Source: a virus
Strand: one strand, 5' to 3'
Length of the DNA: 36,294 nucleotides
IMG/VR virus record: IMGVR_UViG_3300036766_002195
Coordinates: 1 to 36,294 of that record
Numbering within the stretch: position 1 is the stretch's first letter; every line of letters begins with the position of its first letter. The notes beneath the pieces were generated by a model that did no database searches, was not told where the DNA came from, and saw nothing but the letters and a program-made list of their open reading frames with translations. Of this stretch, positions 6,382 to 32,600 are shown piece after piece. Both the position numbers and the translations under genes were made by a program.

Positions 6382-6657
6382 ATGGCGGATGAAAGCAGAA
6401 CTCGAACGTGCAGGGACTGCGGCGAGGAGTGGGAGTTCACCGAGAAGGACGAGGCGTTCCTGCGCAAGACGTTCGGCGACAAGTACACCGAGCCCACACG
6501 CTGCATACCCTGCCGCAAGATCAATAAAGAGAAGAAGGCCAGTCAGTCTACAAGCGACCTTGATCCCGCGCGGGGCACGCGGGGCGGACGCTTCTCTGCT
6601 GACCAACCCAATCTCGCCAACAACCAGCCCAAGCGACAGCGTGCACGTGGGCAATGA
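6382..6657 (+). CDS. Small zinc-ribbon protein (zf-trcl-like)
   Basis: This 91-residue protein has two CxxC pairs, C10/C13 and C41/C44. Around them are CRDCGEEWEFTEKDEAFL and EPTRCIPCRK, which match the pattern of the 'probable zinc-ribbon' (zf-trcl) family found in many bacterial and phage small proteins. The tail is basic and disordered (KRQRARGQ) and may contact nucleic acid. GAAAGGGA precedes the ATG. Its stop overlaps the start of the glycosylase gene as ATGA, so the two are translationally coupled. The exact role of the family is unknown. Confidence 0.75.
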   Translation: MADESRTRTCRDCGEEWEFTEKDEAFLRKTFGDKYTEPTRCIPCRKINKEKKASQSTSDLDPARGTRGGRFSADQPNLANNQPKRQRARGQ

Positions 6658-7220
6658 CGTGGACACCCGCATTCGGTAGGCCGCGAGGGCAGTACTACCA
6701 CGGGCTGCTCTACAACCCGAACTGCGCCGAATGCCCACTGCAGAACGACACCAAGGTCTTTCCTGACGGACCTGTCCCCGCCCGAATCGCCCTCGTCGGT
6801 GAGGAGCCCGGCAAGCAGGAAGTCGCAGTAGGCCGTGGCTTCGTAGGGCCTTCGGGCTACCTCCTCTGGCAGATGTGCAAGGAGGTCGGCCTCGTGCGCG
6901 AAGACGTCTGGGTCACCAACGCCGCGCTCTGCCGCGCCCGGGACGTCGTCAACCCACTCGGCGCCCGCACTCCGCTCATGCTGGTCAAGGCCTTGGCTGC
7001 CAAGGCATGTCGCGAGCGTCTCATCCGAGAGCTGGCCCAGGTCGATCCGGTTGTCATCATACCCCTTGGCAACTGGGCGCTCTGGGCGCTCTCGGACATT
7101 CCCAACGCTCGCATCTACTCGTACCGCGGCTCTCGCATCGAGACCGATCTCGAGACACTGGCTGACCGCGTGGCCCGCGGTCTGTGCCAAACACCCATGC
7201 GCCAGATCAAAGAGGAATAG
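6654..7220 (+). CDS. Uracil-DNA glycosylase (family 4/5-like), N-terminal part only
   Basis: It shows the Fe-S family of uracil-DNA glycosylases. CAECPL holds C24 and C27, motif 1 is VGEEPGKQE (48-56) followed by GRGFVGPSGYLL, TNAALCRAR supplies C93, and AKACRERL supplies C119. The IIPLGNWALWAL strand and a YRGSRI turn follow. Four Cys for the cluster are therefore present. The protein then ends after about 28 more residues and lacks motif 2, the H-P-[SA]-A loop needed for uracil removal. That motif appears 800 bases downstream at the start of the polymerase gene (IPTIHPAALMRNP). In phage SPO1 and relatives a glycosylase-like domain is fused to the polymerase, so this looks like the first half of a broken fusion. 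Activity may need assembly with the polymerase, or may be lost. Confidence 0.75.
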   Translation: MTWTPAFGRPRGQYYHGLLYNPNCAECPLQNDTKVFPDGPVPARIALVGEEPGKQEVAVGRGFVGPSGYLLWQMCKEVGLVREDVWVTNAALCRARDVVNPLGARTPLMLVKALAAKACRERLIRELAQVDPVVIIPLGNWALWALSDIPNARIYSYRGSRIETDLETLADRVARGLCQTPMRQIKEE

Positions 7221-7221
7221 A

Positions 7222-7584
7222 ATGATTCAACGTGATCAGAGTGTCGAGAACGTGGTCTGTCCTGCTGTCCAGCAGATCGCCCGCGAGGTCTGTGCTGCCA
7301 TCATGAGCTGCGAGCACGACCACGACTTTCACCACCAGGCGGTGAGCTACGCCTCGCAGCGCCTTGCCCGCTTCGGCGAGATGACGCCGGCCGAGGATGC
7401 CATCTTCCAGATCCTGTCGACGCTGGCGGTTGCGTGGCCGCCAGCGGTGCAGCCGGCGCAGATTCCGACGCAGCCCCTGCCGCTGCAGCCGGTGACGGCG
7501 CCGCCGTTCCCACCACCGCAACTTGTCCCCGAGGGTGCGCGGCAGTCCTATGTGCCGGTCAACCTGCCACCGGAGAGAGTGTAG
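7222..7584 (+). CDS. Hypothetical protein with Pro-rich C-terminus, inside the glycosylase-polymerase split
   Basis: The ATG at 7222 overlaps no other gene and has AGAGGA just upstream; longer in-frame starts would lie inside the glycosylase gene. Residues 1-70 are helical and include a His/Asp/Cys cluster (CEHDHDFHH near 30-38). Residues 72-120 are rich in Pro and Gln (repeated P-x-x-P). The first half might be a small folded, perhaps metal-binding domain and the second half a flexible arm. No family is recognised. It is the first of three genes that separate the two parts of the glycosylase domain. Confidence 0.65.
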   Translation: MIQRDQSVENVVCPAVQQIAREVCAAIMSCEHDHDFHHQAVSYASQRLARFGEMTPAEDAIFQILSTLAVAWPPAVQPAQIPTQPLPLQPVTAPPFPPPQLVPEGARQSYVPVNLPPERV

Positions 7585-7590
7585 CTTCGC

Positions 7591-7812
7591 ATGCCTGCAC
7601 TCCGAGAGAACCAAGCGGCCAACGCAGCCCTGGACAAGAAAGTCCTCGCTGCCGTGCGCAAGGGCGTCGACCAGTTCATGGACATCTGCGTGGACGTCGG
7701 TGTCAGCGTGGGCACGAAGGGCGACGAGTTCCGTACTGTCGACCGCAGCTTGCAACGCCTACGGCGAGCGGGGGCCATCCACTTCGTGAAGGGCAAGTGG
7801 GAGCGCTGCTGA
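7591..7812 (+). CDS. Small winged-helix-like protein
   Basis: This 73-residue basic protein ends in a segment typical of a recognition helix and wing (FRTVDRSLQRLRRAGAIHFV then KGKWERC). The N-terminal half is helical. The fold call is by pattern only. It follows the previous gene after six bases and its stop overlaps the next start as TGATG, so the three inserted genes behave as one translational unit. It could be a DNA-binding accessory factor of replication, or a regulator. Confidence 0.55.
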   Translation: MPALRENQAANAALDKKVLAAVRKGVDQFMDICVDVGVSVGTKGDEFRTVDRSLQRLRRAGAIHFVKGKWERC

Positions 7813-8030
7813 TGTCTGTCTCGTTCGGTTGCCACTGCCTCGAGAGCAAGAAGCCCGTGAAGGCGCGGGCCTGGGTGGTAGTCCAACGGCGCTGTCACCA
7901 CTCAGCCTTCGCGGGCTACCAGCAAACGCCGAGTCGCTACTCGACCGTCTTCTGCAAGAGCTGCCGTGCACTCGGTCGCACCAAGGCCAGATACGTGCAC
8001 GAGCTTCCCGATGGAGAGATCACCGCGTGA
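7812..8030 (+). CDS. Small Cys/His-rich protein
   Basis: This 72-residue protein contains CHC near the start, RRCHHSAF in the middle and FCKSCRAL near residue 49, giving enough Cys and His for one zinc site. Basic residues around them suggest nucleic-acid contact. It starts at the ATG in TGATG that overlaps the previous stop. It ends at the TGA in GTGA that contains the polymerase start codon, so it is coupled on both sides. No family is recognised. It is the last of the three genes lying between the two glycosylase pieces. Confidence 0.6.
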   Translation: MSVSFGCHCLESKKPVKARAWVVVQRRCHHSAFAGYQQTPSRYSTVFCKSCRALGRTKARYVHELPDGEITA

Positions 8031-10105
8031 CCTGGCTGATCCCCACCATCCATCCTGCCGCCCTGATGCGGAACCCTCGTCCGATCTCCAACGAGATCAA
8101 GATGGACCTGGCAAAGGCAAACCGCATCTCGCAGTACGGCTTCGAGCAGGAGGAGCACTTCGTCATTGCCCACCCCGCGAACCCCTCGGGCATCTACCCG
8201 ACGGTGAAGGAAGCACTCGCCTGGATGGATCGATGGATGGGTCTCAAATGCCCGGTGGCCGTCGACGTCGAGACCTCGGCACTCGAGTTCTTCCGTTGTC
8301 AACTCTTCTCCATCGCACTCTCCGGCGTGGACATGAACACGGCCATCGCCTGGTCGCTCCGCGACTACATCACGCTGCCCTGGGATGCACAGCTGGCTCT
8401 CGACCGCAAGCTCGCCGAGCTCCTCGCGCATCCCGAGGTGCCCAAGATCTTCCACAACGCGCCCTACGACTTCGCGGTGCTCACCCGCAAGGGCTTCACG
8501 ATCAACGGTCCCATCGAGGACACGCAGGCCTACGCCCACCTCGTGCAGCCCGACAGCTACAAGGACCTCGGCTGGATCGGTCACACGTGGCTGGACGTGG
8601 AGCCGTGGAAGCTCAACCACAAGACAGGGAAGAAGCACGCCACCACCAAGGACATCATCGAGCTCTTGATCTACAACGCGAAGGACGCGCTCAACACGGC
8701 CAAGCTGCGCAACCCACTCCTCGACGAGATCCTCGCCCGCGGGATGAACATGCTCCTGGTCCAGTACCAGAACGCCTTCGCCCGCCTCGCTGCGCGCATG
8801 GAGCTCGTCGGCATGCCCGTCAACTTCGCCAGGCGTAGGGAGATGGGACGGGTGCTCCTCGCCGAGCTGGACGATCTGCGGCAGCGCATGCGCGAGTATC
8901 TGCGGTGGCCAACCTTCAACCCGATGAACAAGAACCACGCAGTTGAAGCCATCTACGGGACCACGCACAACTACAACCCGCGCAAGTCGAAGGCGCCACC
9001 AGGCGTGCAGTACATCGGTCTCACGCCGACGGCCTGGACACCATCTAAGAAGCTCCCGTCGACCAAGTACGAAGACCTGCTCGACAACATGGAGCACCCC
9101 TTCATCAAGATGTTCATCTCCTACGTCGAGAACCACCACGTCCACGCGACGCAGTACCGCGACGCACCGACGCAGAAGGGCGACCCGAAGGCGGGCGCCT
9201 ACGCCAAGGCGGTCGAGGCTGATGGGCGCCTGCATGTGAAGTGGAACCCGACCGGGCAGAAGGGCTCGCGGTTCTCCTCGGAGCCCAACGTGCAGAACCA
9301 GCGTGCCAGGGACCGCGTGTGGTTCGAGGCGCCCGAGGGCCGCATTCTCGTCGGGGCGGACAAGGACGCGCTCGAACTACGTCTGGCCGCTGTCTTCTCC
9401 GGCGTGCGCGAGCTCATTGCCGAGATGACCCGCCCCGGTGGCGACCCACATCGTCTTGCTGCAGTGAACATCTTCGCCGAGAAGTTCCTCTCGAGACCGC
9501 CCGAGGAGCAGAAACGCCTGCGCGATGGCGTGAAGACCACCGTCTACGCTGCGCTCTACCGGGGCGGGGTCAAGACCGTGCACAAGAGCATCCGCAAGAA
9601 GAAGTGGCTCGACGCCTCGTTGCGCGCGGCGCTGACTCTCGAGGTCGTCGGTCACATCTACCACAGCTACTTTGGCAAGTACGTCGAGATCCCCGCCTGG
9701 CACGACCTGAACTACTCGCTCGCGCAGTCACAAGGCTACCTCGAGATCCCCCCGCTTGGCCGCCGACGCTACTTCCCGGTGCAGCCGCCACCCTACACCG
9801 AGATCGCGAACTGGCCCATTCAGACAGCTGGTAGCGACGCGGTGGGCATGGAGATGGTGCAGATTCAGGACGAGCTCGACCGCTGCTTCCACGGCGACGC
9901 TTCGATCATCCTGCACGGGCACGATGCCGTATACATCGAGTGTGCCGAACGCCACGCTCTGGACGTGGCCAAGATCGTCAACCGCATCTTCGGCGCCACG
10001 CCGATGATGGGCCCGGCCGGGCCGCTCGCGCTGACGGCGACGGCCAAGATCTGTCGGAATCTTCAATTTAGCAAGAAAGAGGTCACGACGGTGCCGCGAG
10101 AATAA
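8027..10105 (+). CDS. Family A DNA polymerase with 3'-5' exonuclease and a leftover glycosylase C-terminal motif
   Basis: The GTG at 8027 is taken as start because it overlaps the upstream stop (GTGA); in-frame codons before it look non-coding. Residues 4-16 (LIPTIHPAALMRN) match motif 2 and the end of Fe-S uracil-DNA glycosylases. The proofreading domain follows: Exo I D80/E82 in VDVETSALEF, Exo II N144/D148 in FHNAPYDFAVL, Exo III Y216/D220 in YNAKDAL. The polymerase domain has motif A (GADKDALELRL, about 443-453), motif B (GVKTTVYAALYRGG) and motif C (LHGHDAVYIE, about 629-638). It is 692 residues and has no 5' nuclease, as in many phage enzymes. It should be the replicative polymerase. 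Motif C reads H-D-A rather than H-D-E. The last 12 residues are nearly repeated at the end of the next gene. Confidence 0.92.
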   Translation: MTWLIPTIHPAALMRNPRPISNEIKMDLAKANRISQYGFEQEEHFVIAHPANPSGIYPTVKEALAWMDRWMGLKCPVAVDVETSALEFFRCQLFSIALSGVDMNTAIAWSLRDYITLPWDAQLALDRKLAELLAHPEVPKIFHNAPYDFAVLTRKGFTINGPIEDTQAYAHLVQPDSYKDLGWIGHTWLDVEPWKLNHKTGKKHATTKDIIELLIYNAKDALNTAKLRNPLLDEILARGMNMLLVQYQNAFARLAARMELVGMPVNFARRREMGRVLLAELDDLRQRMREYLRWPTFNPMNKNHAVEAIYGTTHNYNPRKSKAPPGVQYIGLTPTAWTPSKKLPSTKYEDLLDNMEHPFIKMFISYVENHHVHATQYRDAPTQKGDPKAGAYAKAVEADGRLHVKWNPTGQKGSRFSSEPNVQNQRARDRVWFEAPEGRILVGADKDALELRLAAVFSGVRELIAEMTRPGGDPHRLAAVNIFAEKFLSRPPEEQKRLRDGVKTTVYAALYRGGVKTVHKSIRKKKWLDASLRAALTLEVVGHIYHSYFGKYVEIPAWHDLNYSLAQSQGYLEIPPLGRRRYFPVQPPPYTEIANWPIQTAGSDAVGMEMVQIQDELDRCFHGDASIILHGHDAVYIECAERHALDVAKIVNRIFGATPMMGPAGPLALTATAKICRNLQFSKKEVTTVPRE

Positions 10106-10108
10106 ATC

Positions 10109-10795
10109 ATGGTAGCCCGCATAGACATACGTGGCCGGCGGTTTGGACGTCTCGTGGCGACACGTCGAGTGCCCGTGGTGCAAGGCCGGTCGTTCTGGCG
10201 CTGCCGCTGCGACTGCGGCAGAATGACCTCGGTGTACCTCAACAGCCTTCGATCAGGATCCACACGATCCTGCGGGTGTCTTCGATCTGAGACCAGCAAG
10301 CAGCGACACCTGATTCATGGCTGCAGCACGCCGGTGACGTCGGAGTACCGGACGTGGCGGGCGATGCTCCAGCGTTGTTATGACTCAGCGGACGTCAGCT
10401 GCAAGAACTACGGCAAGCGTGGCATTGGCGTGTGCCGCCGCTGGCGTCAATCTTTTGTGGCCTTCCTCACCGACGTCGGTCGAAAGCCGTCCAGGCAGCA
10501 CAGCCTGGGCAGAATCAAGAACAATCGAAACTACACACCCAGCAACTGTCGATGGGAGACACGAAAGCAACAGGGGCGCAACCGACGTGGCAATGTCTGG
10601 CTGCGCGTCAATGGCCAGAGGCGCACGCTGACCGATTGGGCACGTCGGAGACGAATCAGCCTCACGTTGATCTGCGAGCGGCTCAAACGCGGCTGGGGTG
10701 CGCGGGATGCAGTGCTCACGCCACCGCAACATTTCGGCTATCGGCAGAAGAAGTTCGACAAGAAGGAAGTCACCGTGGTCCCGAGGGCGGCATGA
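10109..10795 (+). CDS. HNH homing-type endonuclease at the polymerase 3' end, ending in a copy of the polymerase tail
   Basis: The domain order is: a zinc site at 32-57 (CRCDCG and SCGC); the HNH region at 80-160 (WRAMLQRCYD, YGKRGIGVCRRW, HSLGRIKNN, NYTPSNCRWET); and a C-terminal DNA-binding segment at 170-203 (TLTDWARRRRISLTLICERL). This is the order found in free-standing phage HNH endonucleases, and the gene at 31962-32600 is a paralogue. Where that copy reads HTIDRRDNN, this one reads HSLGRIKNN, so two acidic positions are lost and activity is doubtful. The last 15 residues (KKFDKKEVTVVPRAA) closely repeat the polymerase C-terminus (FSKKEVTTVPRE). The stop overlaps the next start as ATGA. 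The gene therefore seems to have been inserted just before the original polymerase tail and now uses that tail as its own end. Confidence 0.85.
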   Translation: MVARIDIRGRRFGRLVATRRVPVVQGRSFWRCRCDCGRMTSVYLNSLRSGSTRSCGCLRSETSKQRHLIHGCSTPVTSEYRTWRAMLQRCYDSADVSCKNYGKRGIGVCRRWRQSFVAFLTDVGRKPSRQHSLGRIKNNRNYTPSNCRWETRKQQGRNRRGNVWLRVNGQRRTLTDWARRRRISLTLICERLKRGWGARDAVLTPPQHFGYRQKKFDKKEVTVVPRAA

Positions 10796-13428: not shown

Positions 13429-13862
13429 TGCCCGTCTACGACAGCATCTTCGACCACCCCAACTGGGACTGCGATGGCCCTCTCTGCATCTGGAAGGCCA
13501 TCAGCATCCGGCACTCGGACCACTGGCTGCGTGAGGTCAGGAGCTCGACCTCTCCAGAACTGCTGCAGATCATGCTAGCCATCGAGCTTGTCTGCCCGCA
13601 CCCTCGATGCAACTACAGCTTCCATCCATTTCGCTGGCGTCGACAAGACCTGTCTGGTGCTAACGAGCCCCGAATGAATCGCGGCGGCCTCTGCTTCCAT
13701 GTCAGCTGCGCCCAAGAGGATCGCTATGCTCGTGGCTCAAAGATCGGATGCGACAAAGGCAAGGCAGCCACGGACGCGGCCAACAAGATCGGCTACTTCA
13801 TCTTCGAGAAGTTCAGGCAGTTGGGCTACTACCACCGGGACGATTCCAGACGCCCGCGCTAG
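13428..13862 (+). CDS. Hypothetical Cys/His-containing protein, 144 residues
   Basis: It starts at the ATG in TGATG overlapping the previous stop. It contains CDGPLC near residue 15, a CPHPRCNYSFHPFRW segment near 56-70 and GLCFHVSCAQ near 87, so a zinc site is possible. The C-terminal 40 residues are a charged helix. No family is recognised. It lies between the zinc-ribbon protein and the HhH glycosylase and shares their high Cys content. Confidence 0.55.
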   Translation: MPVYDSIFDHPNWDCDGPLCIWKAISIRHSDHWLREVRSSTSPELLQIMLAIELVCPHPRCNYSFHPFRWRRQDLSGANEPRMNRGGLCFHVSCAQEDRYARGSKIGCDKGKAATDAANKIGYFIFEKFRQLGYYHRDDSRRPR

Positions 13863-13872
13863 AGGTGAACCC

Positions 13873-14673
13873 ATGGGTTGGGCCTATGGCAAGCTCGCCG
13901 ATGGGCGAGAGATCGGCTACTCCGTGCCAGACATCTGCAACGCTCCGAGCTGCAAGATCAAGATCGACAGGGGCCTCGCCTACGTCTGCGGGGGCATGCA
14001 CGAGGGCGGCGACTGGGGCTGCGGCAAGTACTTCTGCGAGGACCACCGCAACGTCGGCCCTGTCCCTGGTGGCGAGTACGTCCAGCTCTGCGACAACTGC
14101 CTCAAGAAGTGGGAGGGCTGGCTCGAGAGACAGGCTGAGCTCCAGACCAAGCTCATCTACGCCATCGTGGTGGCCGGCAAGAGTGCCCGGTTCGCCAACG
14201 AGGTCATGCGCAGCCTGTGCGGCGAGGTCAACCGCGACGACGGCGAGCTCCTCTTCGACTTCTTGAACCGCAAGCGCGAAGCTGGTGAGCTTCGCCAGAC
14301 TCTCGAGCAGCACCGGACGGGCAACTACACCAAGCTCGAGAAGGCCATCGGTACGCTGCTCGAGGAGAGCTTCGACCTCGATGCAGTGGGACCCGAAGAC
14401 CTCGAGACGGTCCACGGTATCGGTCCCAAGACCGCCCGCTTCTTCATCGTCTGGACCCGACCGGCTGAGCGCTACGCGGTCCTCGACGTGCACATCCTTC
14501 GCTGGATGCGAGAGCACGGCCACGACGTCCCGCGCTCGACGCCTCAGACGCCGCAGCTCTACCGGCGCATCGAGGGCTGGTTTCTCGAGGAGGCGGCCAA
14601 ACGCAAGCTCACGCCGCGTCAGCTCGACCTTGAGATCTGGGGCAAGGCTGCTCGCTTCCCAAACGAAGTCTGA
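13873..14673 (+). CDS. HhH-GPD DNA glycosylase (8-oxoguanine glycosylase-like) with N-terminal zinc finger
   Basis: Residues 85-266 form a helix-hairpin-helix glycosylase. VAGKSARFANEV (100-111) is in the damaged-base pocket region. VHGIGPKTARFF (180-191) is the hairpin with the candidate catalytic lysine K186. YAVLDVHILRWM (201-212) carries the candidate aspartate D205. A Lys plus Asp pair indicates a bifunctional glycosylase/lyase, as in Nth and Ogg/AGOG enzymes. Similar phage proteins are commonly labelled thermostable 8-oxoguanine glycosylases. Residues 20-77 hold eight or more Cys/His (C22, C27, C39, C50, C55, H58, C73, C76) that can form one or two zinc sites. This is an unusual N-terminal addition for the family. 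AGAGG precedes the ATG. The role would be base excision on phage or host DNA. Confidence 0.75.
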   Translation: MGWAYGKLADGREIGYSVPDICNAPSCKIKIDRGLAYVCGGMHEGGDWGCGKYFCEDHRNVGPVPGGEYVQLCDNCLKKWEGWLERQAELQTKLIYAIVVAGKSARFANEVMRSLCGEVNRDDGELLFDFLNRKREAGELRQTLEQHRTGNYTKLEKAIGTLLEESFDLDAVGPEDLETVHGIGPKTARFFIVWTRPAERYAVLDVHILRWMREHGHDVPRSTPQTPQLYRRIEGWFLEEAAKRKLTPRQLDLEIWGKAARFPNEV

Positions 14674-31923: not shown

Positions 31924-31961
31924 GCTTGACCTCTGAGGACGTTTTCTGCTACGTGTTGGAG

Positions 31962-32600
31962 ATGAACCTCAAAGGACAGCGTTTCGGTCGACTTGTCGTG
32001 ACTTCCAGAGCCCCAAATTTGCCCGGACAGACCTACCGTTCTCCTCGCTGGAGAGTGCATTGCGATTGCGGTAGCAAGAAGACCGTCTTCCAGGTTGCGC
32101 TGCGTTCTGGACAGGTGATCAGTTGCGGATGCAATCGCAGAGAGCGGGCACAAGAGAACATGCGCAAGAATCGGATCACACCTGACAATCTCCGACATGG
32201 GCGAACCAAAACACCCGAGTGGAACGCTTGGTGCGGTATACGTCAGCGATGCACCAACCCTAACCATCCTGCTTGGGAGAACTACGGTGGACGCGGCATC
32301 GTTGTTTGCAAGCGCTGGCTGGAGTTTGAAAACTTCTTCGCTGACATGGGCCAACGACCCACCGAAAAGCATACGATTGATCGAAGGGATAACAATGGTC
32401 CCTACTCTCCCGAAAACTGCCGCTGGGCCACACGCAAGGAGCAGGCAAACAACAAGCGCAACAATGCGCGCTTCGAGTATCGCGGAGAGTCGCATACACT
32501 TGCCGAATGGGCCGAGATGCTTGAGGTTGGTAGAAGCACGCTCCAGGCACGCGTCCTTGCCCAAGGATGGCCCACAGCACTCGTCATGTCGAAGCAGTAG
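31962..32600 (+). CDS. HNH homing-type endonuclease, antisense between two tail genes
   Basis: The 212-residue product has a zinc site at 34-57 (CDCGSKK, SCGC). The HNH region at 85-165 reads [46 protein letters not shown] and [10 protein letters not shown]-terminal HTH-like segment follows at 180-205 ([20 protein letters not shown]). The core keeps the acidic positions lost in the paralogue at 10109. It sits in the only wide gap between the two paralogous minus-strand tail genes, in the opposite direction. That is typical of a free-standing homing endonuclease that spreads by cutting alleles without it. The start at 31962 has GGAG nearly touching it; translation strength is uncertain. Confidence 0.85.

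What the first reader, a model, noticed from the sequence alone, without database searches (positions are those of the whole stretch)
6654..8160. Uracil-DNA glycosylase domain cut in two by three inserted genes, with its catalytic loop left on the polymerase
Seen: the 6654-7220 product has the Fe-S cysteines and motif 1 (VGEEPGKQE) but stops before motif 2. Motif 2 with its flank (LIPTIHPAALMRNP) opens the polymerase gene at 8027. Between them are three small coupled genes. Known: family 4 glycosylases resemble the N-terminal domain of phage SPO1 DNA polymerase, so a glycosylase-polymerase fusion is a plausible ancestor. Inference: an ancestral fusion was opened by gene insertion, or a two-gene arrangement arose in which the halves assemble in trans. 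A split glycosylase that must dock on its polymerase would tie uracil recognition to replication.
Basis: partly seen in the sequence, partly recalled or inferred. Interest (0 to 1): 0.8.

Follow-up and report, generated by a model that had tools for sequence, protein, structure and literature searches.

The report
Split uracil-glycosylase domain on phage polymerase
In this phage and a handful of relatives, the uracil-recognising domain that many phages carry fused to their DNA polymerase is encoded in two pieces, one as a separate small protein and one as the first forty residues of the polymerase, so the two proteins probably have to dock to complete it.

Summary
The 188-aa product (6654-7220) is a family-4-like uracil-DNA glycosylase (UDG) domain that ends before its last strand and motif 2. 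The missing strand, motif 2 (IPTIHPAALMRNP) and following helix form residues 1-40 of the PolA gene (8027-10105). A profile of intact UDG-PolA fusions from other phages matches the small proteins at columns 9-170 and the polymerase N-termini at 169-207. Intact fusions are common (PHROG 17, phiLo 9qhs).

The same split occurs in six other IMG/VR phages with both halves and probably in two distant ones. The proposed cause is not supported: one relative has no inserted gene (TAGTG overlap), others carry different ones, including a vault-protein gene. Split and fused polymerases fall on opposite sides of a well-supported branch, so the split looks single and old, with later gene turnover.

The small protein folds confidently alone (pLDDT 88); polymerase residues 1-40 are conserved but predicted disordered alone (pLDDT 41-51). 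This suggests reassembly in trans, which was not modelled as a complex. Catalysis is uncertain: motif 1 is GEEPG and the family-4 PPxN asparagine is not conserved.

Verdict: real, conserved, apparently unreported; a new variant of a known fusion.

The parts
6654..7220 (+). UDG half: 188 aa, four Fe-S-type cysteines, motif 1 GEEPG, stops before strand beta-4 and motif 2; has an extra C-terminal tail of about 25 residues
   Evidence: Pfam UDG positions 1-101/141; NCBIfam UDG_fam4 1-113/173; fused-UDG profile columns 10-162/210; AlphaFold2 pLDDT 88.2, aligned to 1ui0 residues 3-148
7222..7584 (+). inserted gene A, 120 aa with Pro-rich C-terminus, no confident family
   Evidence: no homologue in the fetched loci
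7591..7812 (+). inserted gene B, 73 aa, PHROG 7185 of unknown function
   Evidence: E 2.1e-7; no homologue in the fetched loci
7812..8030 (+). inserted gene C, 72 aa, Cys-rich, overlaps gene B and the polymerase start
   Evidence: no homologue in the fetched loci
8027..8140 (+). polymerase residues 1-38: UDG strand beta-4, motif 2 (HPAALMR) and C-terminal helix left on the polymerase
   Evidence: fused-UDG profile columns 170-207 (E 1.5e-6); invariant P6, H9, P10, A11, A12, L13, R15; pLDDT 41-51 when folded alone
8027..10105 (+). family A DNA polymerase with 3'-5' exonuclease domain, 692 aa, GTG start
   Evidence: Pfam DNA_pol_A 1.3e-26 and DNA_pol_A_exo1 4e-10; PHROG 17 positions 605-1229

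Best explanation
The ancestor was a single UDG-PolA fusion protein. In one phage lineage the fused gene split in the permissive loop just before the edge strand that carries motif 2. The first piece became a separate Fe-S-type protein with motif 1; the second (strand, motif 2, helix) stayed on the polymerase as its first ~40 residues. The two proteins, encoded side by side in one tightly packed gene run, most likely dock so that the polymerase peptide completes the sheet and uracil pocket, giving a polymerase with a non-covalently attached uracil-recognition module. Different small genes later occupied the gap. Shown by sequence: fused relatives, matching halves, conservation, common break point. 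Inferred: docking, uracil binding, and the functional link to replication. Excision of uracil is possible but not secure.
For: Intact fusions in other phages: L011, L033, L021, phiLo and others; PHROG 17 holds the fused domain at 476-1236 in one protein, and the split pieces match 480-595 (L004 UDG half) and 605-1229 (window polymerase). The fused-UDG profile is tiled by the UDG halves and then the polymerase N-termini in all seven loci with both halves; only L004 overlaps, by one column; controls. Motif 2 is invariant in the five aligned split polymerases; purifying selection on the motif 1 region (pN/pS 0.26) and motif 2 segment (0.37), with pS near saturation. The UDG half folds alone with pLDDT 88; polymerase residues 1-40 do not (41-51) while the adjacent body does, the pattern of a segment that folds on a partner. 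Split and fused polymerases are separated at 99.2/100 support. Precedent: split phage genes encode pieces that form working enzymes, Aeh1 nrdA and phage 25 gp43 (PMC2988022).
Against: No complex was modelled and nothing was measured. Low pLDDT at an N-terminus with a shallow alignment (10 sequences) is weak evidence for binding-coupled folding. The UDG-half model is well ordered without the missing strand. Motif 1 is GEEPG rather than GE(A/G)PG, and the PPxN-loop asparagine of family-4 enzymes is not conserved, so the pocket may not be catalytic. The two distant split relatives have a degenerate motif 1.
Confidence: 0.7

Rival explanations
1. The halves reassemble, but the domain is a non-excising uracil or DNA clamp: it stalls or steadies the polymerase rather than removing uracil, somewhat as the vaccinia UDG D4 serves as part of a processivity factor.
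For: GEEPG instead of GE(A/G)PG and no conserved PPxN asparagine (motif definitions PMC10359453); degenerate motif 1 in distant split and some fused relatives; D4 precedent PMC5682278.
Against: Glu50, the four cysteines, and HP plus Arg of motif 2 are invariant in the close clade, more than a pure scaffold needs; L016 has a normal GEGPG.
Confidence: 0.35
2. The 188-aa protein works alone in another role and the polymerase N-terminus is a vestige.
For: The small protein is predicted to fold well alone; it has its own C-terminal tail.
Against: The polymerase N-terminus is about as conserved as the exonuclease domain (mean pairwise identity 0.61 for residues 1-17 against 0.62) with motif 2 invariant; a vestige in a lineage this diverged should decay.
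Confidence: 0.12
3. Insertion of the three window genes split a formerly intact fusion in this phage.
For: Three genes do lie between the halves.
Against: L004 has the split with no insert; six other relatives have different inserts; the window genes have no homologues in those loci; split and fused polymerases separate on one branch.
Confidence: 0.05
4. Assembly or frameshift artefact.
For: One relative, L004, differs only by overlapping frames.
Against: Seven contigs (window and six others) show the same break, most with real genes in the gap and own start codons; L004 has an upstream AAGGAAGAG ribosome-binding-like sequence.
Confidence: 0.01

Closest known systems
UDG-PolA fusion polymerases of phages (PHROG 17; Thermus phage phiLo polymerase, PDB 9qhs; Pseudomonas phage PaBG DNA polymerase I)
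   Same: Same modules in the same order, homologous over the whole length; the UDG-half model aligns to 9qhs at Z 8.8, 3.7 A over 127 residues; PaBG polymerase with a UDG domain is published (PMC7412058)
   Different: Here the UDG domain is cut between the RG segment and beta-4 and encoded by two genes
Family 4 uracil-DNA glycosylase (T. thermophilus UDG 1ui0; T. maritima TM0511 1vk2)
   Same: Fold (1ui0: Z 13.2, 2.9 A over 142 residues), four cysteines, motif 1 Glu, motif 2 HPxxxxR (on the polymerase)
   Different: Incomplete in one chain; GEEPG; PPxN asparagine not conserved
UdgX
   Same: Top structural match (6l6s_B Z 13.7, 3.4 A over 147 residues; tied with family 4) and best NCBIfam E-value
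   Different: No KRRIH loop and no GEQPG
Split phage enzymes: Aeh1 NrdA, T4-like gp43A/gp43B (PMC2988022)
   Same: One ancestral phage replication gene in two pieces; in 44RR only an untranslated sequence separates the gp43 pieces, much as L004 has no insert
   Different: There the catalytic polymerase or reductase is split; here an accessory domain is split and one piece stays on the polymerase; no homing endonuclease seen in the gap

Membership tests
UDG-PolA fusion polymerase (PHROG 17) | UDG, 3'-5' exonuclease and PolA modules homologous to the family | tested here: met
UDG-PolA fusion polymerase (PHROG 17) | all modules in one polypeptide | tested here: not met
   two ORFs with a stop and three genes between
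Family 4 UDG | motif A GE(A/G)PG | tested here: not met
   GEEPG in the window; the catalytic Glu is present, the third residue differs; definition PMC10359453
Family 4 UDG | motif B HP(S/A)xx(L/V)R in the same chain | tested here: not met
   HPAALMR is on the polymerase, not the 188-aa protein
Family 4 UDG | four Fe-S cysteines | tested here: met
   Cys24, 27, 93, 119 aligned to 1vk2 and 1ui0; invariant in all six aligned sequences
Family 4 UDG | catalytic Asn of the PPxN loop (TthUDG N89) | tested here: not met
   no Asn aligned there in the window clade, present in fused L011, L021, L033
Family 4 UDG | uracil excision | not testable with these tools
   needs an assay
UdgX | GEQPG and KRRIH loop | tested here: not met
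   sequence of P0001; definition PMC10359453
Split phage enzyme | fragments of one ancestral protein encoded by separate neighbouring genes | tested here: met
Split phage enzyme | fragments assemble into a working complex | not testable with these tools
   no complex prediction or assay available

The most novel reading that the evidence does not exclude
A catalytically active uracil-DNA glycosylase whose active site is built from two proteins, with motif 2 supplied by the phage DNA polymerase, so that uracil excision can occur only when the glycosylase is docked on the polymerase.
Probability: 0.4. Interest if true: 0.82.

Novelty: new variant of a known kind. Interest (0 to 1): 0.6.

Why it matters
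Phage polymerases with a fused UDG domain are common, yet what that domain does in replication is not established in the papers found here. A natural split makes it directly testable: the domain can be added, removed or mutated in trans without touching the polymerase body. If active, it would be a repair enzyme whose active site exists only on the polymerase. It also offers a case of domain fission at a loop that elsewhere in the family accepts large insertions.

Tried and rejected
Insertion-first origin: rejected by L004 and the varied inserts. Assembly error: rejected by recurrence. Complete UDG elsewhere in the window: six-frame profile search found only the one locus. UdgX membership: rejected on motifs. 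Defence role: no PADLOC match for the UDG half or the three inserted genes. Programmed frameshift joining the halves: not pursued for the window, as three genes intervene. Host or prophage relatives: the genome-contig search with A1 found none. Searches from the distant split phages L012 and L009 in IMG/VR gave no further copies of this split, but one yielded a different fission (L034-L036). A DNA pattern for start codon plus motif 2 found no new split member beyond those known. The tail of the UDG half does not superpose on beta-4 and the last helix: aligned ranges end at model residue 165-171, so it does not obviously replace the missing part.

Full report
What is there. The window is a phage record. 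The 188-aa ORF at 6654-7220 is a UDG-superfamily domain: Pfam UDG E 2.5e-18 but only profile positions 1-101 of 141, NCBIfam UDG_fam4 1-113 of 173. The next large gene, 8027-10105 (GTG start), is a family A DNA polymerase with a 3'-5' exonuclease domain, opening with VTWLIPTIHPAALMRNPRPISNEIKMDLAKANRIS. Three small genes lie between with tight or overlapping junctions.

The two pieces are one domain. In PHROG 17, fused polymerases match from about 476-481 to 1229-1236 in one protein; the L004 UDG half matches 480-595 and the window polymerase 605-1229. I built a profile from UDG domains of intact fusions only. UDG halves match columns 9-170 and polymerase N-termini 169-207 of 210; in the window the two are 10-162 and 170-207, and only L004 overlaps, by one column. 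Against 1026 ORF N-termini, the best non-split sequence scored 2.5 bits in the C-terminal part of the profile, compared with 15.5-25.9 for split polymerases. In the archaeal-virus fusion vir526 the segments matching the two window proteins lie three residues apart in a single protein. A joint alignment with phiLo, vir526 and others puts the break in the loop between the RGS segment and the strand before HP. AlphaFold2 folds the UDG half with pLDDT 88.2 and pTM 0.84; it aligns to T. thermophilus UDG residues 3-148, so that enzyme's last strand, motif 2 and helix have no counterpart in this chain.

The split is conserved. IMG/VR searches gave seven further contigs of this clade; six show both halves and L016 ends before the polymerase. 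In all six, motif 2 opens the polymerase. The gap differs: nothing in L004 (TAGTG overlap); one gene in L001; one gene in L003 and L005; a small gene, a vault-protein gene and more in L002; a phosphoesterase and a small gene in L016; small ORFs in L030. A small gene family recurs in L002, L003 and L016. The three window genes have no homologue in these loci. Two distant phage records seem to have the same break: MW202637, where an RNA ligase gene lies in the gap and the annotated polymerase start misses VPKIEALHPGTAFF; and MW202477, with a degenerate UDG half. Their assignments are weaker: the fused profile gives E 3.4 for the L012 polymerase start and 0.016 for the L009 UDG half.

History. 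A polymerase tree separates nine split from eleven fused sequences with 99.2/100 support (FastTree 0.993). With a root among fused forms one old split suffices; the root itself is not determined. L004, without insert, is nested in the clade, so inserts have come and gone. The same loop carries large insertions in two fusions that stay in one frame: about 140 residues with zinc-ribbon-like cysteines in L049 and about 125 in L064. This suggests a permissive site where fission costs little.

How it likely works. The motif 1 region and motif 2 segment are under purifying selection (pN/pS 0.26 and 0.37, synonymous sites near saturation). The polymerase N-terminus is conserved like the exonuclease domain yet predicted disordered alone: pLDDT 41, 43, 50 and 51 for the first four blocks of ten, against 82-95 for the next four, and structural matches of the polymerase begin at about residue 40. 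The simplest reading is that it adds an edge strand, the motif 2 loop and a helix to the UDG half; the strand order is from general knowledge of the UDG fold. Split phage proteins that re-form working enzymes are known: Aeh1 NrdA and phage 25 gp43 (PMC2988022). I put reassembly at 0.7. Active excision is less sure, about 0.4: Glu50 and the four cysteines are invariant, and polymerase His9 and Arg15 are invariant, but GEEPG departs from GE(A/G)PG and the PPxN asparagine is not conserved. A non-excising role is the main rival; the vaccinia UDG D4 is a polymerase processivity subunit (PMC5682278).

Literature. PaBG polymerase with a UDG domain is described (PMC7412058). The phiLo polymerase structure 9qhs is in the PDB; no paper on it was found. 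No paper found here describes a UDG domain split between two genes, but the library lacks most subscription journals.

Limits. Few sequences (seven loci with both halves); only single-chain predictions; no host known; no experiment. Novelty rests on a partial library.

Noticed in passing
L002 6690-9344 (IMGVR_UViG_3300037126_000158): A Major Vault Protein homologue (Pfam MVP_shoulder 1.4e-15 and Vault_3 7.7e-10, both above cut-off) encoded in a viral contig inside the UDG/polymerase gap.
   Followed up: partly
L034 3864-7002, also L035 and L036: A different fission of the same polymerase family: degenerate UDG plus the first part of the exonuclease in one ORF, two small genes, then the rest of exonuclease plus polymerase.
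   Followed up: partly
L019 around 3245: UDG-exonuclease ORF ends with TAA and an ATG follows in the same frame after one codon, near the exonuclease position where L034 is split.
   Followed up: no
L049 6841-8049; L064 minus strand: Intact fusions with insertions of about 140 and 125 residues in the same loop where the window protein is split; the L049 insert has zinc-ribbon-like CxxC pairs.
   Followed up: partly
L004 6534-9545; L005 6773-11095; L064: Intein-like insertions in the polymerases (two in L005), judged from alignment gaps and sequence, not by a family search hit.
   Followed up: partly
window 10109-10795 and 31926-32600: Two related HNH endonuclease-type ORFs (PHROG 374, E 2.8e-54 and 6.1e-67), one directly after the polymerase.
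   Followed up: partly
L012 (MW202637) 1601-1700: The annotated polymerase start omits an N-terminal stretch with motif 2 (VPKIEALHPGTAFFG), open in frame from after the RNA ligase gene.
   Followed up: partly
window 13699-14673: Weak match to an OGG-type helix-hairpin-helix glycosylase (22.9 bits, cut-off 27), possibly a second DNA glycosylase in this phage.
   Followed up: no
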